Source of the DNA: Winkia neuii
Lineage (GTDB): Bacteria; Actinomycetota; Actinomycetes; Actinomycetales; Actinomycetaceae
Length of the DNA stretch: 64,000 nt
Direction of reading: 5' to 3'
NCBI RefSeq assembly: GCF_029011175.1
Contig: NZ_CP118946.1
Location: 434,001-498,000 of the forward strand
The notes below the pieces were generated by a model. It was not told the origin of the DNA. It searched no databases and worked only from the letters and a program-made list of their open reading frames with translations. The translations under genes were made by a program, and so were the position numbers. Position 1 is the stretch's first letter. Every line of letters begins with the position of its first letter. Shown here in pieces: positions 5,173 through 52,532 of this stretch.

Positions 5173-7396
5173 TGGCCGCTTGACCCTACCTATCGAAGAG
5201 GGCATGGACAGCCAGATTCGTGAACTGGTAGCCCGCCTAAAACCGGATGCGGTGCGAAATTCTGACGGCACCGCCCTGCCCGCACTAGCGAAGGAGCTAG
5301 TCGACAAGGTGTATGCCACCTATTTCCCGTCTAGGGGCGACCACGGCTGGTCGCGGGCGCACCCAGATCAGCGCGTGCACCAGTATTTGATGAGCCGCCG
5401 CAAAGTAGCTGGCAGCAATGAAGCGCTCCAGATCGATGTGATGGAGGGGTATTTTGCCCAGCAGTTTGCGCCCGAACTAGAGTGCGACCTGGCTAAGTAC
5501 TGGCAGGTCATAGACCGTACCACCGGCAGGGAAGTGCCTCCCAGCGGGTGGAGCGTAGCGCCGGCCCCCGCCCGCCCAATTGATCGGGAAGCGGAAGCGG
5601 CTAACTCCGGTCCAGAAGACGCAGAATCGGCCTCGGCAATCGTCACCATTGCCAGCCCCGAACTGCTCCACGAATACACGGTAAACTTCCTGGCCCGGCA
5701 GATTTGGGATTCGACCCAGATCTACAACTACCTGACCAACGACTGGGCAAGCGATCCCACCCGCAAGAAGGACAAGACTTACGATCCTGCCTACGCCCAG
5801 ACCTGGCAGTTCATGCAGAAGGCCCTGAAGGAATGGTTGGATGAACACCCCGAAGTAGACGTGGTTCGCTTCACCACCTTCTTCTACCACTTCACCCTGG
5901 TCTTCGGTGAAGATGCCCGCGAGAAGTACGTAGACTGGTTCGGCTATTCTGCCGCGGTTTCCGTGCCCGCCCTGCAGGCGTTTGAAAAAGAAAAGGGCTA
6001 TGCGCTGCGCCCTGAAGACTTTGTGGATGCCGGCTATTACAACTCGCCCTTCCGCCCTCCAAAAGCGCATTTCTTGGACTGGATTGACTTCGTCAGCAAG
6101 CAGGTGGCAGACAAGGCAAAGACCCTGGTGAAGACCACTCACGATGCCGGCAGGGAAGCCATGATGTTCCTGGGCGACAACTGGATTGGCACCGAGCCTT
6201 ACGGGAAGTACTTCCCAGACATCGAATTGGATGCGGTAGTCGGGTCCGTTGGCAACGCCGCGACCTGCCGAATGATCAGTGACATTCCAGGCGTGCGCTA
6301 CACGGAGGGACGGTTTTTGCCCTATTTCTTCCCAGATGTGTTCAACCCCGAGGGCGATCCGGTGGGCGAAGCCAACGAATCGTGGCTGGGCGCTCGCCGA
6401 GCCATCATTCGTAATCCCCTGGATCGCATGGGCTACGGCGGCTACCTCTCACTAGCCATGCAACACCCTGACTTCATCGACCGGGTGGAACAGATTGTTG
6501 CAGAATTCCGTTCCCTCCACTCGGTCACCGATGGGCAGCGCCCGCTGAACAGTCCTATCAAGGTGGGAATCGTCAACGCTTGGGGCGCTCTGCGCAGCTG
6601 GCAGACCCACATGGTGGCGCACGCCCTGCACTACCGCGAGGCCTACTCCTACGTGGGGGTTATTGAAGCGCTCGCGGGGCTACCTTTTGAGGTGCAGTTC
6701 CTCAGTTTCGCCGACGTTGTAGACGGGGCGCTAGAGGGCGTCGACGTGGTAATCAATGCCGGTTCTGCTGGTACTGCTTTCTCGGGTGGTCCGGCATGGG
6801 AGGATCCGAAGTTAGTGGTGGCTATGCGCGAGTTCGTGGCGCGCGGGGGCGGCTTCATCGGGGTAGGGGAACCTACTGCGTTGACCGCGGCAGCTGCCGG
6901 GCGTACGGGCGCTACTTTCGCCCTCTCCGATGTGCTGGGTGTTGACCGGGAACGCGATTGGTCCTTGTCCACTGACAAGTACCCCAGGCGGGCAGAGGAT
7001 CACTTTATTACTGCCGATTTGTCTGCCCCCTTTGCTCCCGGCGAGGCAATAAATGGGGTATTCGCTACCACTGGTACCTCGTTAGCTCATACCGAGGGTG
7101 GGCTGATCCTAGCAGTCAACCAGTACTTTGCGGGACGCGCAGTCTACGCATCCGGGTTGGCCTATTCGATCCCTAATGCGCGCCTTCTACACCGCGCACT
7201 GTACTGGGCGGCTGGAGCCGAAGAGCAGTGGGCCTGCAGCGGCGTAAGCGATAACCCGGCCTTGGAAGTAGCGCATTATCCCAACGGCAAGGTGCTGGTC
7301 GCAAACATCAGCAATACTGATCAATCTGGCACATTTTCTACAGTGTCGAAAGAAGCTATAACTGTTCCATCTATGCAGGTCAAATGGGTTAAGTGA
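5165..7396 (+). CDS. lnpA: 1,3-beta-galactosyl-N-acetylhexosamine phosphorylase (GH112, GNB/LNB phosphorylase)
   Basis: This 743-residue protein matches LnpA of bifidobacteria as I remember it: GRLTLPIEEG and DAVRNSDGTALP at the N-terminus, KYWQVIDRTTGREV, and FLGDNWIGTEPYGKYF, whose Asp338 corresponds to the catalytic acid. It cleaves galacto-N-biose or lacto-N-biose with phosphate to Gal-1-P plus GalNAc or GlcNAc in the cytoplasm. Length is normal for GH112. The ATG at 5165 has AGAAGGAG in front; the open frame from 5135 does not. It sits between the sugar kinase and the ABC importer, as expected for intracellular phosphorolysis of an imported disaccharide. Confidence 0.95.
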   Translation: MDSGRLTLPIEEGMDSQIRELVARLKPDAVRNSDGTALPALAKELVDKVYATYFPSRGDHGWSRAHPDQRVHQYLMSRRKVAGSNEALQIDVMEGYFAQQFAPELECDLAKYWQVIDRTTGREVPPSGWSVAPAPARPIDREAEAANSGPEDAESASAIVTIASPELLHEYTVNFLARQIWDSTQIYNYLTNDWASDPTRKKDKTYDPAYAQTWQFMQKALKEWLDEHPEVDVVRFTTFFYHFTLVFGEDAREKYVDWFGYSAAVSVPALQAFEKEKGYALRPEDFVDAGYYNSPFRPPKAHFLDWIDFVSKQVADKAKTLVKTTHDAGREAMMFLGDNWIGTEPYGKYFPDIELDAVVGSVGNAATCRMISDIPGVRYTEGRFLPYFFPDVFNPEGDPVGEANESWLGARRAIIRNPLDRMGYGGYLSLAMQHPDFIDRVEQIVAEFRSLHSVTDGQRPLNSPIKVGIVNAWGALRSWQTHMVAHALHYREAYSYVGVIEALAGLPFEVQFLSFADVVDGALEGVDVVINAGSAGTAFSGGPAWEDPKLVVAMREFVARGGGFIGVGEPTALTAAAAGRTGATFALSDVLGVDRERDWSLSTDKYPRRAEDHFITADLSAPFAPGEAINGVFATTGTSLAHTEGGLILAVNQYFAGRAVYASGLAYSIPNARLLHRALYWAAGAEEQWACSGVSDNPALEVAHYPNGKVLVANISNTDQSGTFSTVSKEAITVPSMQVKWVK

Positions 7397-13084: not shown

Positions 13085-14656
13085 GTGGCACAAAAAGAAA
13101 CGAATGAAGCAGCAGACGTAAAAGTAGATCTTCCTGAGCAGGTGCGTGTTCGTGCGGAAAAGCGTGAGCGCTTGCTTGCTGATGGGCGTAACCCGTATCC
13201 AGTGTTGGTGCCGGTTACGGCCACGATTAGCGAGGTCCGTGAGAAGTATGATCTGGCTGCTGGCGAAGAGACTGATGATTTTGTTGGTGTTGCTGGGCGC
13301 GTGATGCTTTCGCGTAATACTGGCAAGCTGTGTTTCGTTACTCTGATGGACGGCGAAGGCAACAAGTTGCAGGCTATGTTGTCGGCTCGCGAGATCGGTG
13401 CTGATTCATTGAAGAGTTACAAGGCCGACGTTGACTTGGGCGATCACTTGTTTGTGTATGGTCGGGTTATTTCTTCGCGTACTGGCGAGTTGTCGGTTAT
13501 GGCCATTCCGGGGAGCACTCCTGATGAGCGTACCGGGGTTGTTCCTCCGGCATGGATGCTTACGTGTAAGTCCATTTTGCCCTTGCCGAAGACGTTTGAG
13601 GGCAAGGATGGGGCGTCGGTGCTGTCTGAGGAGCAGCGTGTTCGTAGGCGTGAGCTGGATATGATTATGCGGCCTAGGGCGCGTGAGATGGTGCGTCTTC
13701 GTGCTCGCGTGGTGAAGTCTTTGCGTGATTACTTTGATGAGCAGGGCTTTATCGAGATGGAAACTCCGATTTTGCAGAACCTGCACGGTGGGGCGGCGGC
13801 TCGTCCGTTTACCACTCACATGAATGCTTATGACACGGATCTGTACTTGCGTATTGCGCCTGAGCTGTTCTTGAAGCGGTGCCTGATTGGTGGCATTGAG
13901 CGCAACTTCGAAATTAACAGGAATTTCCGTAATGAGGGCGCTGATTCTTCGCACTCGCCTGAATTCACCATGCTTGAGGCCTACGCGGCTTACGGCAACT
14001 ACGACACTATTGCCCAGTTGACCAAGGAATTGATTCAGAACGCGGCTATTGCGGCTACCGGTTCTACGCTGGTGACTTTGGCTGATGGTACTGAGTATGA
14101 TCTGGGTGGCGAGTGGAAGGAGATGGATTTGTATTCCACTCTTTCCGAGAAGATTGGCGAGCAGATCACTCCCGAGACTCCGCGTGAGCGGCTGGTTGAG
14201 CTGGCTGAAGAGCGTGGGATTGTTGTCGAGGACTACTACGTGCCGGGCAAGCTGGCCGAAATGCTGTGGGAAGAAGAGGTCGGTGACGATCTGTACGAGC
14301 CTACTTTCGTGAAGAACTTCCCCGAGGATACTTCTCCGCTGGTCAAGCAGCACCGTTCGCGCAAGGGTGTTGTAGAGAAGTGGGATTTGTACGTGCGTGG
14401 TTTTGAGTTGGCTACCGGCTACTCCGAGCTGAACGATCCGGTGGTCCAGCGCGAGCGCTTCGAGAAGCAGTCTTTGGATGCCGCTAATGGTGATCCTGAG
14501 GCAATGGAAGTGGACGAAGAGTTCTTGCAGGCTATTGAGCTGGGTATGCCCCCGGCCGGTGGCATGGGTATGGGTATTGACCGCTTGCTCATGGCTATTA
14601 CCGGTCTTGGTATCCGCGAGACCATCACCTTCCCACTAGTGAAGCGGCAAGGCTAG
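13085..14656 (+). CDS. lysS: Lysyl-tRNA synthetase, class II
   Basis: A 523-residue class II synthetase that charges tRNA-Lys. The OB-fold anticodon-binding domain lies first (VGVAGRVMLSRNTGKLCF). The catalytic core follows with motif 2, FEINRNFRNEGADSSHSPEFT, and motif 3, GMGMGIDRLLMAITG, near the C-terminus. The GTG at 13085 is preferred; a TTG at 13076 is in frame but also lacks a ribosome site. Codon use in this gene is noticeably rich in GT-ending codons compared with its neighbours, as for other highly expressed genes. It is followed by a strong hairpin and appears monocistronic. Confidence 0.97.
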   Translation: MAQKETNEAADVKVDLPEQVRVRAEKRERLLADGRNPYPVLVPVTATISEVREKYDLAAGEETDDFVGVAGRVMLSRNTGKLCFVTLMDGEGNKLQAMLSAREIGADSLKSYKADVDLGDHLFVYGRVISSRTGELSVMAIPGSTPDERTGVVPPAWMLTCKSILPLPKTFEGKDGASVLSEEQRVRRRELDMIMRPRAREMVRLRARVVKSLRDYFDEQGFIEMETPILQNLHGGAAARPFTTHMNAYDTDLYLRIAPELFLKRCLIGGIERNFEINRNFRNEGADSSHSPEFTMLEAYAAYGNYDTIAQLTKELIQNAAIAATGSTLVTLADGTEYDLGGEWKEMDLYSTLSEKIGEQITPETPRERLVELAEERGIVVEDYYVPGKLAEMLWEEEVGDDLYEPTFVKNFPEDTSPLVKQHRSRKGVVEKWDLYVRGFELATGYSELNDPVVQRERFEKQSLDAANGDPEAMEVDEEFLQAIELGMPPAGGMGMGIDRLLMAITGLGIRETITFPLVKRQG

Positions 14657-14670
14657 AACAAGTCTCAGCT

Positions 14671-14694
14671 GTGGCCCCGCCTTGGCGGGGCCAC
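14671..14694 (+). terminator. Terminator hairpin after lysS
   Basis: GTGGCCCCGCC pairs perfectly with GGCGGGGCCAC across a very short loop, 14 bases after the lysS stop. The following sequence is ACACATTTGTGG, so the U-tract is poor, but the stem is very stable. Confidence 0.75.
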
Positions 14695-14743
14695 ACACAT
14701 TTGTGGTGATAGATTTTTTACAGGAAATCGAAGGGGGGGATCC

Positions 14744-16369
14744 GTGGCAAATTCGCAGCTCAACGCGTCTCAGAGGGCGCGGGACATAGCCAAGATGGAA
14801 GCCGGAGAGATCTTCGACATCCTGGTAATCGGAGGCGGCATAAATGGGGCGGGTATCGCCCTCGAGGCGGCCAGCCGCGGGCTAAGCGTAGCTCTAATCG
14901 AAGCCCAAGACTGGGGCCAGGGCACCTCTTCTAGAACAAAGGGGCTGATCCACGGCGGCATCTCGTGGCTAGAGGACCGCGAAGTACACGAAATAGCAAA
15001 AGTGGCGGCCGAACGTGGCATTATGCTGCAAACCACGGCGCCACACCTGGTCAAACTCATGCCCTTTATCTGGCCGATCGAATTTGGCATCAAGGATCGC
15101 ATCCGCCAAATTGGCGTAGCCTTCATCCACGACATGGTGGTCCGCGCTGGCGTGCGGGGAGCCGTGCCGCCGCCGCGCACGTGCGGGGTGAAAGAGGCAG
15201 TACGCGCGTTCCCCTCGTTAGCGCGTAGTCCCAGGGCAGGCGCGCTTCGGTTCTTTGACGCCGTCGTAACCGACACCCGACTGGTCATCACCGTGTTGCG
15301 CACGGCGAAACGCTACGGTGCCACGGTGGCTTCGCGCGTGCAGGCAACTAAGATATTGCGCGACGCCTCCGGCAAAGTCAACGGGGCAGAGGTTTCTGAT
15401 CAACTGCGGCCAGGCCACCGCTTCCGCGTACGTGCCCGCCACACCGTTCTGGCAACCGGACCCTGGGTAGCCTCCTCGTCCCTGCAGATGTCACCGGAAC
15501 TGGCCGACAAGGTGCAGCTGCAAAAAGGAGTCAACATTTCTGTGCCGCGCAGTGCCATCCGCGGCTCTACCGGCGTCTACCTAGCTACGCCCTCGCGCCC
15601 AATCACCCTGGTGCCGCGCCGAACCCACTGGATCATCGGCTCCTACTGCCGGCCTTACGACGGCGACAAGTCTCACCCCAAAGTGTTGGAAGAAGACATT
15701 GAGGCACTACTAGAGCAGGTCAACTCCTACCTGTCAGTGCCGATCAGCCGGGCCGACGTGGAATCGGCATGGGCAGGCGTTCGCTATCTGATCGTAGACA
15801 AGGACCACCCGCAGGGAGCCACCATGCGTTGGCCGTACATTTCCGACGTAGGCTCGGGCATCACGGCAATATTTGGGGGAGCAATGACGCTCTACCGGCT
15901 GACGGCCGAACGCACCATCGACCAAATCATGCGCCACCTAGACAAATGGCGGCCATCACGCACCGCCAAGCTGCCGCTGATCGGAGCAGCCGACTACGCC
16001 AAGATGTGGAACACCCGCTATTCCGTGGCCGCCACCGCCGGCCTAGACTCCGTACACATCGCCTCTATGCTGAACAGGTACGGTGACGAGGTCGAAGACA
16101 TGCTGGCGCTAATCAAACAAGAACCGGTGCTGGCCGAAAAGATCCCCGGAGCCCCCGAACGTCTAAAAGTCGAAATTGTGTGGGCACTACGCAGCGAGGG
16201 AGCACTCACCCTAACTGACGTCATAGACCGGCGCCTGATGCTGGGCCGGCGCCACCAAGACGCTGGCAAAGAGGCGGCACCAGCCATCGCCGAAGTGGTG
16301 GCTAGGGCATGCAAGTGGAGCGAAACAAAAAAGGAAGCCGAACTAGCCGACTTCCTTTCTGCCCACTAA
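14744..16369 (+). CDS. glpD: Glycerol-3-phosphate dehydrogenase/oxidase, FAD-dependent
   Basis: A 541-residue flavoprotein of the GlpD/GlpA family, which oxidises glycerol-3-phosphate to dihydroxyacetone phosphate and feeds electrons to the quinone pool at the membrane. The FAD-binding loop is VIGGGINGAGIALEAASRG (residues 28-46), followed by GTSSRTKGLIHGG. FDAVVTDTRLV and the C-terminal helical domain also fit. The middle motif is more often SSRSTKLIHGGLRYLE, so this is a somewhat divergent member. GTG start after GGGGGGATCC. The stop overlaps that of the convergent NYN-domain gene. No glycerol kinase or facilitator lies nearby. Confidence 0.9.
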   Translation: MANSQLNASQRARDIAKMEAGEIFDILVIGGGINGAGIALEAASRGLSVALIEAQDWGQGTSSRTKGLIHGGISWLEDREVHEIAKVAAERGIMLQTTAPHLVKLMPFIWPIEFGIKDRIRQIGVAFIHDMVVRAGVRGAVPPPRTCGVKEAVRAFPSLARSPRAGALRFFDAVVTDTRLVITVLRTAKRYGATVASRVQATKILRDASGKVNGAEVSDQLRPGHRFRVRARHTVLATGPWVASSSLQMSPELADKVQLQKGVNISVPRSAIRGSTGVYLATPSRPITLVPRRTHWIIGSYCRPYDGDKSHPKVLEEDIEALLEQVNSYLSVPISRADVESAWAGVRYLIVDKDHPQGATMRWPYISDVGSGITAIFGGAMTLYRLTAERTIDQIMRHLDKWRPSRTAKLPLIGAADYAKMWNTRYSVAATAGLDSVHIASMLNRYGDEVEDMLALIKQEPVLAEKIPGAPERLKVEIVWALRSEGALTLTDVIDRRLMLGRRHQDAGKEAAPAIAEVVARACKWSETKKEAELADFLSAH

Positions 16370-46039: not shown

Positions 46040-46663
46040 TTAGTTAAGGTATAAGAATCCGGCAGGGGTAAGTACCGCGTTCACCTTCTTGTCATGAGGG
46101 GCAATAGGAAGAGCGTTCTCGGCATCTAAAAATTCCGAAGTGTAGACAACTGCGCAAATGCAGGCATCGGCAGAAGCATTTTCCAAAATGTGGTCATACC
46201 AACCCCCACCTTGGCCCAACCTATTTCCGGAACGGTCGATGCTGAGGGCAGGCAGTATAAGCAGCCCGGCTCTACTGATGACGTCCGGGGAAAGTATTTC
46301 GCCAGACGGGGCAGGAGGACGGCCGGGTGCGTGTACCTGCAGGTCGCCCGGGCCGCGGTAGAGCGCCCAGGTGCGAGAAAGCTTGGGTCCAAGGCGTGGC
46401 AGAAGGACTTCCTTGCCCTGTCTGAACGCCTCATTTGCGATGCCCATTACGTCGGGCTCAGCATTTACCGGAACATAGGAGGCAATAGTTTCGTCCTCGC
46501 GTTCCAGCACGGGAGCAGCTGCGTCAAGGATATTTTTCGCCGCCTCTTTCCGGGCCTGAGAAGTTAACTTCTTGCGGCAGGCGCGCACTTTGGCTCTTAG
46601 AGCTGCCTTTTTGTCCTCGATGTCTTCTTCGACTACCGCGTCAAATGATTGCTCCTTATTCAT
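46040..46663 (-). CDS. 5-formyltetrahydrofolate cyclo-ligase
   Basis: A 207-residue enzyme that converts 5-formyl-THF to 5,10-methenyl-THF with ATP. RAKVRACRKKLTSQARKEAA at the N-terminus, EVLLPRLG, and the nucleotide loop GNRLGQGGGWYDHIL near residue 160 are diagnostic. ATG 46663 is chosen; the open frame to 46708 adds an unlikely Cys/His-rich start. It is divergent from moeA, as in mycobacteria, where galU lies between them; here galU is absent. Confidence 0.93.
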   Translation of the reverse strand: MNKEQSFDAVVEEDIEDKKAALRAKVRACRKKLTSQARKEAAKNILDAAAPVLEREDETIASYVPVNAEPDVMGIANEAFRQGKEVLLPRLGPKLSRTWALYRGPGDLQVHAPGRPPAPSGEILSPDVISRAGLLILPALSIDRSGNRLGQGGGWYDHILENASADACICAVVYTSEFLDAENALPIAPHDKKVNAVLTPAGFLYLN

Positions 46664-46755
46664 GATCCCATCATTGCAGGTTTCGGCGTGCGAGCAAGGT
46701 TGCCACATGGAAAACAGATAGCCTTAAGGAAACTGCAACTTTGAGGGGAGCGCGC

Positions 46756-47964
46756 ATGCGAACTGTCGCCCAGCATTTAGAAGCTTGTTTGGCTCAGGTG
46801 GGTCCGCTTCCACCGCTAGAGGTACTGCTACCGGATGCGGTCGGGTGCATTCTTGCCGAGGACGTAGCCTCCCCGTTCGATCTGCCCGTCACCGATGTTT
46901 CCACGATTGACGGATACGCAGTGCGCAGCGTCGACATTGCGGGGGCTAGCGCTGACGAGCCAGTCTATTTGCGCGTAATTGATGAGGTTCGCGCTGGCGA
47001 TGTTGATCCTACTTCAGTGATTGCCGAAACAGCGGTTCGTATTGCTTCTGGGGCGCCGGTGCCAGCAGGGGCGGATGCCGTGGTGGACCTAGAGGACACC
47101 GACCGGGACGAATCGAATGTGCAGATTAAGAAGCTTTCGTTGCCGGGGCAGAATATTCGTCCCCGAGCAAGCGACGTTGAGGCCTACCAGAACGTGTTGC
47201 AGGAAGGCCAGCGCATCGGCGCCAGGCAGATTGCGTTGCTGGCTGGGGTGGGCAGATTGCGTGTACTGGTGCATCCGCATCCTAGAGTCGTCGTCATGTC
47301 CATTGGTGACGAGCTGGTAGAACCCGGTCGGATCGCTAGCCCCGGTGCTGTTTTCGATGCTAATGGGCACGCCCTTGCGGCTGCGGTGGCGGATGCCGGT
47401 GCCGATACTTTCCGCGTCAATGCCGTGCCAGATGAGCACCGCATCCTGCGGCAAACTATCGAGGACCAGCTAGTACGCGCCGACCTATTGATTACTACCG
47501 GCGGTCTTTCCTACGGGGCAGGGGACACGGTAAAAGAGGTCTTGTCGCCCCTAGGGACTGTCCGTTTCGATTCCGTAGCCATTGCTCCCGGCAAACATAT
47601 GGGCGTGGGCACGGTAGAAGATACTCCGATTTTCTGTTTGCCCGGTGATCCCGTAACCGCTCAGATCTGTTACGAAGTATTTGTGCGGCCGGCACTGCGG
47701 TCCATGGCAGGCTGGTCCGAGCTTTACCGCACGGCCCTTACTGCCCGGGTAGACCGGGGCTGGGCCTCGCCGGCTGGGAAACGAGAATTCGTCCGCGTGG
47801 CGCTCTCTGGTGCTCCCGCTGAAGGCTATGTGGCCAGCGTCTGTGGCGACCCCAAGGATCGGCTACTTTCCAAGCTCACGGAGGCGAACGCCCTCGCTGT
47901 AGTTCCGGAGGATGTTACGGAAGTGCGCGCCGGGGACGAACTAGTGTGCATGGTGCTCGACTAG
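46756..47964 (+). CDS. MoeA/gephyrin-like protein (molybdopterin molybdotransferase or Glp-type division protein)
   Basis: A 402-residue MoeA-family protein with all domains: PFDLPVTDVSTIDGYAVRS, IASGAPVPAGADAVV, VVVMSIGDELVEPG (MPT-binding) and TTGGLSYGAGDTVKEVL. ATG 46756 is preceded by GAGGGGAGC. In actinobacteria this gene, followed by rimJ and a membrane protein, includes Glp, the gephyrin-like protein that binds FtsZ in corynebacteria together with its receptor GlpR. No other molybdenum cofactor gene is in the window, so the division role is a serious alternative to molybdate insertion. Confidence 0.88.
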   Translation: MRTVAQHLEACLAQVGPLPPLEVLLPDAVGCILAEDVASPFDLPVTDVSTIDGYAVRSVDIAGASADEPVYLRVIDEVRAGDVDPTSVIAETAVRIASGAPVPAGADAVVDLEDTDRDESNVQIKKLSLPGQNIRPRASDVEAYQNVLQEGQRIGARQIALLAGVGRLRVLVHPHPRVVVMSIGDELVEPGRIASPGAVFDANGHALAAAVADAGADTFRVNAVPDEHRILRQTIEDQLVRADLLITTGGLSYGAGDTVKEVLSPLGTVRFDSVAIAPGKHMGVGTVEDTPIFCLPGDPVTAQICYEVFVRPALRSMAGWSELYRTALTARVDRGWASPAGKREFVRVALSGAPAEGYVASVCGDPKDRLLSKLTEANALAVVPEDVTEVRAGDELVCMVLD

Positions 47965-48641
47965 TGTTCTCGCTAATAGATCAGGCGCGGTTGGCGCTGC
48001 GCAGACCGCTTGACTTGGTCTATGACAAGCCCGAGCTGGCCGCGATTACCACGGCGAATCTGGGCTATTTGCGGCTTAGGCAAATGAAGCGCGCTGATCA
48101 CCTTCGGGTCAATGAACTTCGCTATGGGGAGCGAGAGTGGTTGGGGCCTTGGGAAGCTAGCGCGCCGGTGGGGTACCCGGTAGACCCACCCACCTTTGAA
48201 CAGTATGTGGCCAGCTGTAACAGGCAGATATTGGATGGCCGCATGATGCCTTTGGTCATCGAAGGTGACGGTCAAGCGATAGGGCAACTTACTATTTCCG
48301 ACATCTCGAGGGCGGCTACGCAAAGTTGCGCTATTGGGTATTGGATTTCGCAGACTTGGGCGAATATGGGTTTGATGACTCTGGCAGTGGCTATGGCTCT
48401 GGACGCCTGCTTTACCGATTTGAACCTGCACCGAGCCGAGATCAATATTCGGCCCGAGAACGCCCGTTCCTTGGCGATTCCGCGCAAGCTTGGCCTGCGT
48501 AAAGAGGGAGTACGGCGGAAATACATCTGTATCGACGGCAGTTGGGCGGACCACGTCTCTTTCGCTGCTACTGTCGAGGACGCCCACGGTGGGTTTGTGG
48601 CCAGGCTGGAGGCTCACAAGCAGAACAACAGTTGTTACTGA
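47964..48641 (+). CDS. rimJ: GNAT acetyltransferase, RimJ family
   Basis: A 225-residue N-acetyltransferase of the RimJ/RimL type, known to acetylate ribosomal protein N-termini. LRLRQMKRADHLRVNELRYG and WLGPWEASAP start the fold; GYWISQTWANMGLMTLAVAM carries the acetyl-CoA loop and HRAEINIRPENARSLAIPRKLG the conserved C-terminal part. The GTG at 47964 shares a base with the moeA TAG; a GTG at 47946 with GGGGA in front would add six residues and is equally possible. Confidence 0.9.
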   Translation: MFSLIDQARLALRRPLDLVYDKPELAAITTANLGYLRLRQMKRADHLRVNELRYGEREWLGPWEASAPVGYPVDPPTFEQYVASCNRQILDGRMMPLVIEGDGQAIGQLTISDISRAATQSCAIGYWISQTWANMGLMTLAVAMALDACFTDLNLHRAEINIRPENARSLAIPRKLGLRKEGVRRKYICIDGSWADHVSFAATVEDAHGGFVARLEAHKQNNSCY

Positions 48642-48751
48642 TGTGAAAGTTGTGACTATTGATAAGGGCGGTTATTGAATCGTTCTCATGGTTTGGAACT
48701 TTCGGGGCGAGTCGTCCACGATCCAGCTGTTTCTTTCATAGATTTAACGAT

Positions 48752-49696
48752 GTGGAGTTTGGAGGAGTGGCTTTCGCAGCAGTCGTGCTTGTTGTACTTG
48801 GGGTTGTCTTCCCCAAGGTCGTCTTGTGGCGTTTGGCAACCAGCCAGGGCAACGAAGCGGATAGGTTCTCCGGAAAACTGCAAATATTGAATACTGAAAG
48901 CGTTCAGTACCAAAGCCGCGGGGAAAACGGTGGGATACTGTTCCCCCAAATAGGAGGCAAAATGAACAACAGCAGGTCTGAATTGGTAAATGCGCGTGCG
49001 CAGCGAGCCGCGTTAGTTGCCCGCAGGCATGCTGCTGCCCAACGCAGGGTGGCGCTTACCGTGTTGATGGTGGCCGCCCTCGTACTCGTGCTGATTGTTG
49101 CCGCGGCCGGGAAGATCTCGTTGCTGTGGGCGCTCCTGCCCACTGCGGGAGTTGGCGCTGCACTCTACTATTCCAGGCGCTCAACTGTTGCTGATCGCAA
49201 GCAGGACGTTGCTGATATGGCACGTATTCGCAAACTGAAGCAGGAAGCGCTTGCGGCCGACCGTCCCGCACCGAAGGCGAACAGGTCTTGGCGGCAGCTT
49301 TCTAGACTCACAAAGTATGATCCCGGGATGACCGAGCAGGTTGAGGCGAAGGATCAGGAGCAAGGTCAGCAGAAGCAAGAAGAGGCCAAGACTGGTTCTA
49401 CTGCGCAGCCGGTTGCGGGAAACGAGCGGCCTCGTAAGTATGCCAAGGGGATGACTTGGTCTCCTATGCCGGTCCCTGCTCCGACTCACAAGTTGAAGCC
49501 GCTGGTCCAGCCACGCACTGTGGCGGTGGAACACATGCGTGGGGATACTCCTGCAGCGGGGGTTGCTGTACCGTACAGGCCGCGCTCGGTTCGGAAGGCC
49601 GAGGTTGCGATGACTTCTGCCGAGGTGGCACGTACTGCGCTTGTTCGTATGGATGGGGACGATATGTTGGAGGCTCGTAGAGCGAACGCGTCCTAA
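48752..49696 (+). CDS. sepX: SepX/GlpR-like membrane protein of cell division (Rv0996 family)
   Basis: A 314-residue protein with an N-terminal membrane segment (VAFAAVVLVVLGVVFPKVVL), a conserved-looking ADRFSGKLQILN, two further hydrophobic stretches (VALTVLMVAALVLVLIVAAA and LLWALLPTAGVGAALYY) and a long polar C-terminus with TWSPMPVPAPTHKL and VPYRPRS. Layout and position after moeA-rimJ match mycobacterial Rv0996 and corynebacterial GlpR, the membrane receptor of Glp, and streptomycete SepX. The first segment requires the GTG at 48752, which has no ribosome site; an in-frame ATG at 48962 has a perfect AGGAGG but would drop that segment. Identity is inferred, not searched. Confidence 0.65.
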   Translation: MEFGGVAFAAVVLVVLGVVFPKVVLWRLATSQGNEADRFSGKLQILNTESVQYQSRGENGGILFPQIGGKMNNSRSELVNARAQRAALVARRHAAAQRRVALTVLMVAALVLVLIVAAAGKISLLWALLPTAGVGAALYYSRRSTVADRKQDVADMARIRKLKQEALAADRPAPKANRSWRQLSRLTKYDPGMTEQVEAKDQEQGQQKQEEAKTGSTAQPVAGNERPRKYAKGMTWSPMPVPAPTHKLKPLVQPRTVAVEHMRGDTPAAGVAVPYRPRSVRKAEVAMTSAEVARTALVRMDGDDMLEARRANAS

Positions 49697-49807: not shown

Positions 49808-49883
49808 GGGGCTATGGCGCAGTTGGTAGCGCGTCTCGTTCGCAATGAGAAGGTCGGGGGTTCGAATCCCCCTAGCTCCACCA
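49808..49883 (+). tRNA. tRNA-Ala (anticodon CGC)
   Basis: A 76-base cloverleaf: acceptor GGGGCTA pairs with TAGCTCC, D arm GCGCAGTTGGTAGCGC, anticodon stem TCTCG/TGAGA with loop TTCGCAA, T arm GGGGGTTCGAATCCCCC. The 3' CCA is encoded. Anticodon CGC reads GCG. Confidence 0.95.
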
Positions 49884-50593: not shown

Positions 50594-52532
50594 CTATTCT
50601 TCATAGGCTGCTGGTTTAGCTTGTATCTTCCTGATCCGTTCTATGTCGAGCTTGGAGCTCCTGTCGAACGCAACGATTCCATTTTTCTCTTGGAATACAT
50701 CGGTCAACTGGGTGTAGCAATAGCCAAATGTCTGCGGCATTGCAGTGAGGACTGAGACCAAGCCGGCAAAACGCTCGTAGAACTCCTCTAGTGAACGGAC
50801 TCTGTCCCCATATCCCCACGAAGCGGCCTGATCATTTACTTCCTGTTGCGCTCTCGCTTCCTCCTCGTTCCACCAGATGCCTCCAAACTCAGAGACGAAG
50901 AATGGTTGGCCCGCGTAGGGTACAGAGAAGCTTCCATCTGCAAAAGGCATCTGATTAGGTGCTAACTCCACACGATTTACATAGGGGCTACCAGTAGTTA
51001 GGCCGGATTGCTCTTCCTGGAATGCCTTTGGATCTTGTTCATAGGAGTGGGAGTCATATATGTCAGCATTACGGACCCTGTGCGCATATCCAGAGGTATC
51101 CAAGACTGGACGAGTAGGATCTGCTAATTTCGTGAGCTGGTACATTCCCAAAGTCACGTCGTCTAGAACGGTGATTCGATCGTGCAATACCTGATGGGTT
51201 TCATTTAATGGGCACCACCCAACGATCGATGGGTGGGAAATGTCGCGGGCGAGTGCCTCGGTCCACTGGGTAATAAATGAAGCAGTCGGTTCTTGATTGT
51301 AGCCGAGTGGGCCACGGCCGGAGACGCCCCAATCGCCGAATTCGCCCCAAAGTAGATAGCCGTGTAGATCGGCCCAGAATAGCATTCGCTCTTCGAACAC
51401 TTTTTGGTGTAGGCGAGCGCCATTGAAGCCGGCAGCTAGTGCAATGCAAATGTCGCGTCTTATTGCGTCGTCGTCAGGGGCAGTCATCAGTGAATCTGGC
51501 CAGTAGCCCTGGTCTAGTACTAACCGTTGGAAGACCTTCTTGCCGTTGAGTAGAAACTGCTGTCCATTTAAGGCAGTTGATCGAAGGCCACAGTAGGACC
51601 GCACAGTATCCAGTTCGTGTCCCGCGTTGTCCGTTAAACTTGGCGCAAACGGCGTATAGCTGAGGATTACCAGGTTCCCACAGGCGGACTTTTTCTGAGG
51701 GAATGGGAATCTCTAGATGCGCGGAGAGGTCCGCAGAGATGTGGCTACGGCGGTTAGCAACGGAATCGCCCTCGGGTGTCGTAAGGTCCACCTGCAGAGT
51801 TAAGCCAGGAATGTTCTGTGATACGGGAACAACAAAAGTAAAACTATTGTTTTCTACTGAAGGGAAGATGCGAAGAGAACGAATATGAGTTCTTGGCACA
51901 GCCTCAAGCCACACTGTCTGCCATATTCCAGTTGTGCGAGTGTACTGGCAATGGGTTGAATCGTACCAGGTTGCCTGCTTGCCGCGGGCTTGCGGGGCGG
52001 TTCGAGAATCTCGAGCCCGGACGACTATTTCTACTTCTTCGCCGCCGCTTGCAACACCGTCTAGATCAGCCGCGAATGGGGTGAACCCACCGCGGTGTCG
52101 TGCTACTTCAATGCCATTGACCCATACCGTGGCATCGTGATCTACAGCTCCGAAGTGTAGTACTGGCCGCTTATCGTCGTTCTTCCATGAGGTCGGAAGA
52201 ATCACTTTCTTGCGGTACCACACCGCTTCCATGAAATCGACATTTTCTACCCCGGATAGTCGAGACTCGGGAGCGTAGGGGACAGTAATAGTGCTCGCTA
52301 ACGGGCGTTGCAGAAGACCTCGCTCACGGCCTGAATCGCCTGGGTCGATTTCGAACTCCCATGGACCGTTCAGATTTAGCCAGTTTTCACGAACAAGGCT
52401 TGGGCGGGGGTGTTCTGGTTTAGGCACAGACGTGTCTTGAATTGAAGGATCCAACAGGGAAGCGAGCTTGCTCGCCTTGTTAGTTAGCGTCTGTAGGGAT
52501 GAAAACTCAGCTACATCATTGGAGCTAGTCAT
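50594..52532 (-). pseudogene. GH2-family glycosidase interrupted by a frameshift
   Basis: Two frames together make one GH2 enzyme of about 645 residues. The upstream frame (52532 to about 51640) has the sugar-binding jelly roll (ENWLNLNGPWEFEIDPG, TVPYAPESRLSGV, AVWYRKKVILP, VDHDATVWVNGIEVARHRGG) and the Ig-like domain up to PGNPQLYAVCA. The downstream frame continues with SLTDNAGHELDTVRSYCGLR and the barrel, with acid/base Glu in CPLNETH and nucleophile Glu in FVSEFGG. Removing one base near 51640 (AAG to AG) joins them exactly. Either a recent inactivating mutation or a sequence error. Beta-galactosidase, beta-glucuronidase or related specificity cannot be decided. Confidence 0.85.

What the first reader, a model, noticed from the sequence alone, without database searches (positions are those of the whole stretch)
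46756..49696. Gephyrin-like / RimJ / SepX-GlpR cell-division module without galU
Seen: moeA-like, rimJ and a membrane protein whose N-terminal segment, RFS motif and C-terminal WSPMPVPAP motif resemble Rv0996. Known: in corynebacteria the MoeA paralogue Glp and its receptor GlpR link FtsZ to the membrane; SepX is the streptomycete relative. The galU gene that normally precedes moeA is missing, leaving the cyclo-ligase directly divergent.
Basis: partly seen in the sequence, partly recalled or inferred. Interest (0 to 1): 0.55.

Follow-up and report, generated by a model that had tools for sequence, protein, structure and literature searches.

The report
Molybdenum-enzyme relative repurposed for cell division
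The three genes look like a known cell-division set (a retired molybdenum-cofactor enzyme, a neighbouring acetyltransferase and its membrane partner), and comparing relatives suggests that the retired enzyme comes from a working cofactor gene cluster and may have been retired more than once.

Summary
In detail: 46756-49696 encodes a MoeA-like protein, a RimJ-type acetyltransferase and a SepX/GlpR-type membrane protein, divergent from a 5-FTHF cyclo-ligase. The MoeA is a Glp orthologue: one clade with C. glutamicum Glp (99/99), Pro-rich hinges, the hairpin Tyr, an FtsZ tail ending DLDIPPFLR, and a separate Moco cluster with its own MoeA. It is a new member of a known kind; FtsZ/GlpR binding is inferred.

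GalU's absence is ordinary: 17 of 24 same-family genomes examined lack a strong galU too. More telling, elsewhere the order is galU-moeA-moaC-mogA-rimJ-glpR; this locus lacks moaC and mogA as well. MoeA genes beside moaC and glpR keep Thr100 (66 of 66); glp loci without moaC seldom do (2 of 69). The window's lineage and a C. glutamicum-like family lost different residues. Twenty of 119 genomes have MoaA and one MoeA, near glpR: candidates for a MoeA that moonlights, as gephyrin does. Nine genomes without MoaA keep only Glp; others keep glpR-like genes without glp.

The parts
46756..47964 (+). glp: MoeA paralogue, gephyrin-like divisome protein (402 aa)
   Evidence: Pfam MoeA_N/MoCF/MoeA_C; NCBIfam Glp_gephyrin 462.8 bits (cut-off 475) against MoeA_actino 367.2; clade with C. 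glutamicum Glp 99/99
46801..46821 (+). Pro-rich hinge 1 (GPLPPLE)
   Evidence: alignment to C. glutamicum Glp
47272..47286 (+). Pro-rich hinge 2 (HPHPR)
   Evidence: aligns with YPRPR of C. glutamicum Glp; own canonical MoeA has SPQLR
47788..47835 (+). domain IV hairpin equivalent to the FtsZ-binding loop; Tyr358 = C. glutamicum Tyr369
   Evidence: AlphaFold2 model has strands 343-353 and 357-362 here
47964..48641 (+). rimJ-type GNAT acetyltransferase
   Evidence: PF13302 E 8.8e-18; start overlaps the glp stop by one base
48767..49696 (+). glpR/sepX-type membrane protein (309 aa; open frame from TTG 48659)
   Evidence: NCBIfam SepX_GlpR_2 E 3.1e-13, below its cut-off; alignment with 29 counterparts from glp loci, 19 of them also
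48770..48826 (+). TM1 of GlpR
   Evidence: hydropathy peak 2.6
48863..48871 (+). RFS motif of GlpR (DRFS)
   Evidence: R33 and S35 nearly invariant in 20 rows
49049..49171 (+). TM2 and TM3 of GlpR
   Evidence: hydropathy peaks 3.1 and 1.4; TM3 is weak
49457..49483 (+). WSPMPVPAP motif of GlpR
   Evidence: P237 nearly invariant and P239 invariant in 20 rows
46040..46708 (-). 5-formyltetrahydrofolate cyclo-ligase, divergent neighbour conserved at the locus
   Evidence: PF01812 E 5.1e-27; TIGR02727 above cut-off
46709..46755 (.). junction where galU stands in 7 of 24 same-family genomes examined
47962..47966 (.). glp-rimJ overlap; at this place moaC stands in 81 of 151 loci read and in 24 of the 30 loci of a class sample, mostly with mogA behind it

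Best explanation
A Glp-RimJ-GlpR divisome module of a bacterium of the Actinomyces kind (nearest named relatives found: Gleimia, Georgenia, Schaalia, Buchananella, Actinomyces). Glp, a MoeA-fold protein that should form a dimer, most likely binds the C-terminal tail of FtsZ through the domain IV hairpin around Tyr358 and docks on the cytoplasmic part of GlpR, so that the Z-ring is tied to the membrane and, by analogy with C. glutamicum, to the DivIVA/Wag31 elongasome. Molybdenum insertion is done by the separate canonical MoeA in the Moco cluster; the window protein has Ser98 and Asp368 where E. coli MoeA has Thr100 and Ser371. The role of RimJ is unknown; it is probably co-transcribed, being overlapped with glp. 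Shown here: orthology, hinges, hairpin Tyr, FtsZ tail, gene order, second MoeA. Inferred: every interaction, localisation and the loss of catalysis.
For: Clade with C. glutamicum Glp, 33 glp-locus rows against 34 others, 99/99. Closest solved sequence is C. glutamicum Glp 8bve, 222 bits against 197.4 for the next. Both Pro-rich hinges and the Tyr369 equivalent. Own FtsZ ends DDDLDIPPFLR. GlpR neighbour in the SepX/GlpR family. A separate Moco cluster with mobA-, moaA-, mogA-moaE-, moeB-, moeA- and moaC-type genes and a weak moaD candidate. Nine genomes without MoaA keep a glp-locus gene as their only full MoeA: G003, G012, G019, G020, G021, G022 and G137, G092, G118, which points to a function other than Moco. 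The window keeps 55 of 82 columns conserved in canonical MoeA.
Against: Of seven hydrophobic FtsZ-contact residues named for C. glutamicum (PMC10522489), six were compared: Leu343 is Asp and Met361 is Ser here, and the loop is one residue shorter; Phe414 was not compared. The AlphaFold2 monomer does not show the open hinge: 8bve Z 40.9 rmsd 4.8 is tied with plant Cnx1E Z 40.0 rmsd 2.7. GlpR IDR1 is basic (pI 11.65) where C. glutamicum's is acidic (PMC10522489). NCBIfam cut-offs are missed, Glp by 12 bits and GlpR by 100. R137 and the acids D59, D142, E188, D228 and D259 remain, so loss of catalysis is not certain.
Confidence: 0.8

Rival explanations
1. The window gene is a second working molybdotransferase, redundant with or specialised beside the MoeA of the Moco cluster.
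For: MoeA fold throughout; R137, five acids and the GGLS..D motif kept.
Against: Thr100 to Ser, Ser371 to Asp, NPV to DPV, PGKP to PGKH; 55 of 82 canonical columns kept (0.67) against 0.89-0.93 in five single-copy Moco-positive relatives; orthologues persist in nine genomes without MoaA.
Confidence: 0.08
2. The window protein is bifunctional: it still inserts molybdenum and also serves division.
For: R137 and five acids kept; single-copy relatives look bifunctional.
Against: A canonical MoeA sits in the Moco cluster. Of 69 glp loci without moaC (nearly all of the window's clade; L247 and L276 lie elsewhere), 67 lost Thr100 and 59 lost Ser371.
Confidence: 0.1
3. The membrane protein is not GlpR but an unrelated neighbour kept near glp by chance.
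For: No Pfam match above cut-off, NCBIfam match below cut-off.
Against: Profile match E 3.1e-13, shared DRFS and W-x-P-x-PVPxP motifs in a 20-row alignment, same place after glp or rimJ in dozens of loci.
Confidence: 0.03

Closest known systems
Glp-GlpR of Corynebacterium glutamicum (Cgl0883/Cgl0885; PDB 8bve/8bvf; PMC10522489, Results section read in full, other parts in passages)
   Same: One MoeA clade, both Pro-rich hinges, hairpin Tyr, one gene between glp and glpR by locus tag, a conserved FtsZ tail, other MoeA copies in the genome
   Different: No galU in the window's genome; hairpin one residue shorter, Met361 and Leu343 not kept; GlpR IDR1 short and basic; different catalytic residues lost
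SepX of Streptomyces (PMC8748795, passages read)
   Same: Three predicted TM segments with two cytoplasmic disordered regions; NCBIfam joins SepX and GlpR under one name
   Different: The nine Streptomyces loci found here carry moaC beside an intact-looking MoeA (9 of 9, 0.91-0.94 of canonical columns), mogA (8 of 9) and galU (9 of 9); SepX was found to bind DynB, which was not searched here
Canonical MoeA (E. coli) and gephyrin E domain
   Same: Same four-domain fold
   Different: Window keeps 55 of 82 columns conserved in 19 canonical rows and lacks Thr100 and Ser371 equivalents

Membership tests
Glp (gephyrin-like divisome protein) | One clade with C. glutamicum Glp, apart from other MoeA | tested here: met
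   33 glp-locus rows, window and 8bve included, against 34 other rows: 99/99
Glp (gephyrin-like divisome protein) | Two Pro-rich hinge regions | tested here: met
   GPLPPLE and HPHPR
Glp (gephyrin-like divisome protein) | FtsZ-binding loop delimited by Met361 and Tyr369 | tested here: inconclusive
   Tyr kept; Met361 is Ser and the loop is one residue shorter; 63 of 70 loci without moaC keep the Tyr
Glp (gephyrin-like divisome protein) | glpR near glp | tested here: met
   window 48767-49696
Glp (gephyrin-like divisome protein) | Conserved FtsZ C-terminal tail in the genome | tested here: met
   DDDLDIPPFLR
Glp (gephyrin-like divisome protein) | Second MoeA in the genome (PMC11733289, abstract) | tested here: met
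   G000:C1:223538-224764; but this feature fails in relatives
Glp (gephyrin-like divisome protein) | Best curated model | tested here: inconclusive
   Glp_gephyrin is the best model by 95 bits, but 462.8 bits is 12 below its cut-off of 475
Glp (gephyrin-like divisome protein) | Open dimer with the binding site at its centre | tested here: inconclusive
   Monomer model only; 8bve and Cnx1E tied in Z, with lower rmsd for Cnx1E
Glp (gephyrin-like divisome protein) | Binds FtsZ tail and GlpR; septal localisation; division phenotype | not testable with these tools
   needs the bench
SepX/GlpR membrane protein | Three TM helices with cytoplasmic disordered regions | tested here: met
   Hydropathy peaks 2.6, 3.1 and 1.4; TM3 weak; disorder not computed
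SepX/GlpR membrane protein | Sequence profile | tested here: inconclusive
   SepX_GlpR_2 E 3.1e-13, 50.3 bits, cut-off 150
C. glutamicum GlpR | Acidic IDR1 (pI 4.05) and basic IDR2 (pI 10.87), as reported for the C. glutamicum protein | tested here: not met
   IDR1 pI 11.65, IDR2 10.29; all 30 rows examined have a basic IDR1, so it is a trait of the C. glutamicum protein rather than of the family as sampled here
Catalytic MoeA | Thr100 and Ser371 of E. coli MoeA (sites named in PDB titles) | tested here: not met
   Ser98 and Asp368 in the window

The most novel reading that the evidence does not exclude
Bacterial gephyrin moonlights. The ancestral glp-locus gene is a working MoeA in a galU-moeA-moaC-mogA-rimJ-glpR cluster, and in many Actinomycetes this one gene still both inserts molybdenum and serves division with GlpR. 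The dedicated, catalytically retired Glp evolved at least twice, once in the window's lineage and once in the C. glutamicum lineage, each time with loss of moaC and mogA from the locus and with different catalytic residues lost. [quoted passage not shown]
Probability: 0.5. Interest if true: 0.66.

Novelty: new member of a known kind. Interest (0 to 1): 0.43.

Why it matters
The window locus is ordinary for its lineage, but it opened a comparison that makes an open question testable. The 2025 study predicts that Glp lost catalysis and does not moonlight (PMC11733289, abstract, section 9 and passages). Genomes whose only MoeA sits near glpR, with MoaA and in 18 of 20 cases a strong molybdopterin oxidoreductase match, are natural places to test whether one bacterial protein does both jobs. 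Genomes without MoaA that keep only Glp are the reciprocal experiment, and genomes that keep a glpR-like gene without glp ask what GlpR does alone.

Tried and rejected
Second working MoeA: set aside because of the catalytic losses and the keepers without MoaA. Local galU deletion as something special: rejected, since 17 of 24 same-family genomes examined lack a strong galU. Structure as proof of the open hinge: the models did not separate open from closed. Hairpin Tyr as a marker of dedicated Glp: weakened, because 19 of 24 moaC-linked genes of the class sample also have it (these are the best matches to a C. glutamicum query, so a biased set), beside 15 of 81 loci with moaC. E. coli sites K279 and R350 say nothing here: 0 of 19 canonical rows keep either. 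Two independent origins by tree alone: the test of one clade gave p 0.027 for the 22 degraded rows, but p 0.124 with the intact, moaC-less L276 added, so the tree favours two origins without proving them; the complementary residue losses are the stronger argument. A paired test of moaC linkage against site state found two or three independent pairs, in none of which the site state differed, so it gives no support. In the trees the 81-82 conserved columns were left out. D259 as a catalytic residue and Rv0996 are recalled, from no call. Wag31, SepF and DynB were not searched. Supplementary files and figures could not be read, so the moaC-mogA context may already be drawn in Extended Data Fig. 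6 of PMC10522489.
Full report
What is there. The window is G000:C1:434001-498000 of a 2.217-Mb genome in one contig. Between a divergent 5-formyltetrahydrofolate cyclo-ligase (46040-46708, minus) and a tRNA-Ala (49808-49883) stand three genes on the plus strand: a MoeA-fold protein (46756-47964), a GNAT acetyltransferase of RimJ type (47964-48641) and a membrane protein (open frame 48659-49696, probable GTG start 48767). NCBIfam's best model for the first is Glp_gephyrin, 462.8 bits against a cut-off of 475 and 367.2 for MoeA_actino; for the third it is SepX_GlpR_2, E 3.1e-13, 50.3 bits against a cut-off of 150. Both fall short of automatic naming. The own canonical MoeA prefers MoeA_actino (391.8) to Glp (366.0), the reverse of the window protein.

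Second MoeA and Moco pathway. The genome has two MoeA_N genes. The other lies at C1:223538-224764 in a cluster with genes of mobA, moaA, fused mogA-moaE, moeB and moaC type and of molybdate transport type. An 84-aa ORF ending in GG directly behind moaA is the moaD candidate, with a weak ThiS match of 16.8 bits against a cut-off of 22.5. Several of these reach Pfam but not NCBIfam cut-offs. The genome also has two strong molybdopterin oxidoreductase matches. So Moco is very probably made and has its own MoeA.

Membership. A tree of 67 MoeA proteins puts all 33 glp-locus rows, the window and C. glutamicum Glp (8bve) included, on one side of a branch supported 99/99. The window has both Pro-rich hinges (GPLPPLE, HPHPR) and Tyr358 in place of Tyr369. 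Six of the seven hydrophobic FtsZ contacts named in PMC10522489 were compared and read L, D, L, S, Y, V here, so four are kept in kind and two are not. FtsZ of this genome ends DDDLDIPPFLR. GlpR-like proteins follow glp in most relatives read, with an N-terminal helix, DRFS, two further helices and W-x-P-x-PVPxP, the last motif altered or absent in some. C. glutamicum GlpR has an acidic IDR1; all 30 rows here have a basic one. AlphaFold2 models of the window protein (pLDDT 94.3) and of G025's (90.7) are MoeA folds; 8bve ranks first for both, but tied in Z with plant Cnx1E, which has a lower rmsd, so the open hinge is not shown.

GalU. Of 39 genomes in the relatives set, own included, 14 have a strong galU (E below 1e-40); among the 24 same-family genomes of that set 7 have it, and in all 7 it stands directly before glp. 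The own genome and both genus mates have none. The missing galU is a loss shared by most of the family as sampled.

The wider locus. I read 151 loci (31 from the relatives set, 40 from the order sample, 80 named). Outside the window's lineage the common order is cyclo-ligase (divergent), galU, moeA, moaC, mogA, rimJ, glpR, for example in Actinomadura and Streptomyces, and the same without galU in the Kribbella and Nocardioides loci. The window lacks galU, moaC and mogA. In a class sample, 24 of the 30 best loci have moaC beside moeA, and the six of family f21 (60-61% identical to C. glutamicum Glp) do not.

Active site. Of 81 columns conserved in 19 canonical MoeAs, loci with moaC keep 0.85-0.98 (81 of 81 loci at 0.8 or more); loci without keep 0.53-0.74 in 68 of 70, the exceptions being L247 (0.83) and L276 (0.86). 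At sites studied in E. coli MoeA: with moaC and glpR, T100 66 of 66, D228 66 of 66, D259 63 of 66, S371 65 of 66; moaC-linked class loci, T100 24 of 24, D142 23 of 24, D228 24 of 24, S371 24 of 24; glp loci without moaC, T100 2 of 69, D228 69 of 69, D259 67 of 69, S371 10 of 69; family f21, T100 6 of 6, D228 0 of 6, D259 1 of 6, S371 6 of 6. K279 and R350 are kept by 0 of 19 canonical rows and are no guide. The two dedicated groups thus lost different catalytic residues. With the conserved columns removed, C. glutamicum and two f21 rows group with L276, away from the window's clade of 19 rows (100/99 for each group, 42 rows); forcing the 22 degraded rows together is rejected at p 0.027, but not when L276 is added (p 0.124). 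Two origins are favoured and not proven.

Single-copy genomes. In an order-wide sample of 119 genomes, own included, 38 have MoaA and exactly one MoeA_N match; in 20 of these (G025, G027, G037, G038, G045, G053, G055, G067, G069, G082, G083, G095, G097, G108, G110, G121, G122, G134, G135, G136) that MoeA lies within 5 kb of a GlpR match on the same strand. I read 19 of the 20 loci (not G108), and all 19 carry moaC and mogA behind moeA. PF00384 at E 1e-40 or better is found in 18 of the 20, not in G027 and G038; weaker single hits may be NuoG (that reading is from memory). In the other 18 single-copy genomes no GlpR match lies near the MoeA, and some of those have no GlpR match at all. [quoted passage not shown] In the trees these genes fall in or beside the Glp clade and most of those read carry the hinge, but their FtsZ binding is untested.

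Genomes without MoaA. In the relatives set, 9 of 39 lack MoaA; six keep a glp-locus gene as their only full MoeA (G003, G012, G019-G022; G020 has a further hit below the cut-off), G008 keeps one and another MoeA-like gene, and G026 and G033 have none. In the order sample 19 of 119 lack MoaA; four keep one MoeA beside GlpR (G021, G092, G118, G137) and 15 have no MoeA. Of those 15, 12 still show a GlpR match, several of them weak. I read four such loci: in three rimJ stands beside the GlpR-like gene, in one of these the cyclo-ligase is still divergent from them, and no MoeA matched in any; three of the four GlpR scores carry a composition bias larger than the score. G006 has only a canonical MoeA but a GlpR at E 3.3e-39. 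So glpR does not always need glp.

Literature. PMC10522489 (Results in full, passages elsewhere) reports conserved glp-glpR context and co-occurrence; 'moaC' and 'galU' do not occur in its main text. PMC11733289 (abstract, section 9 and passages) predicts loss of catalysis and no moonlighting; 'moaC' and 'synten' do not occur in its main text. PMC8748795 was read in passages. No paper of the library has both SepX and GlpR, and two further searches listed no account of a single-copy, Moco-linked glp. Supplementary files and figures were not seen.

Verdict. The finding is real and, as far as sequence can tell, correctly interpreted: a new member of a known kind. The moonlighting reading of the wider family is the part worth a specialist's time.

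Noticed in passing
G000:C1:244467-245831 (outside the window): A strong molybdopterin oxidoreductase match with one in-frame TGA, possibly a selenocysteine formate dehydrogenase.
   Followed up: no
L003:9670-10692 and 13298-14815: In the own Moco cluster a MogA-type and a MoaE domain are fused, and an ABC permease and an ABC ATPase domain are fused.
   Followed up: partly
L068 (G013), after rimJ at 6350: glpR is not next to rimJ; ORFs that look like transposases by eye lie between, and the GlpR match is found about 8 kb after glp.
   Followed up: partly
L096 (G008:C4:1-5616): A genome without MoaA has two MoeA-like genes flanking the cyclo-ligase, one Glp-type and one highly diverged.
   Followed up: partly
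L318-L321 (G044, G042, G057, G026): Genomes without any MoeA keep a GlpR-like gene, in three of the four loci beside rimJ.
   Followed up: partly
window 50594-52532 (-): Two overlapping ORFs in different frames look, by eye, like pieces of one family 2 glycosidase, perhaps a frameshift (not tested).
   Followed up: no
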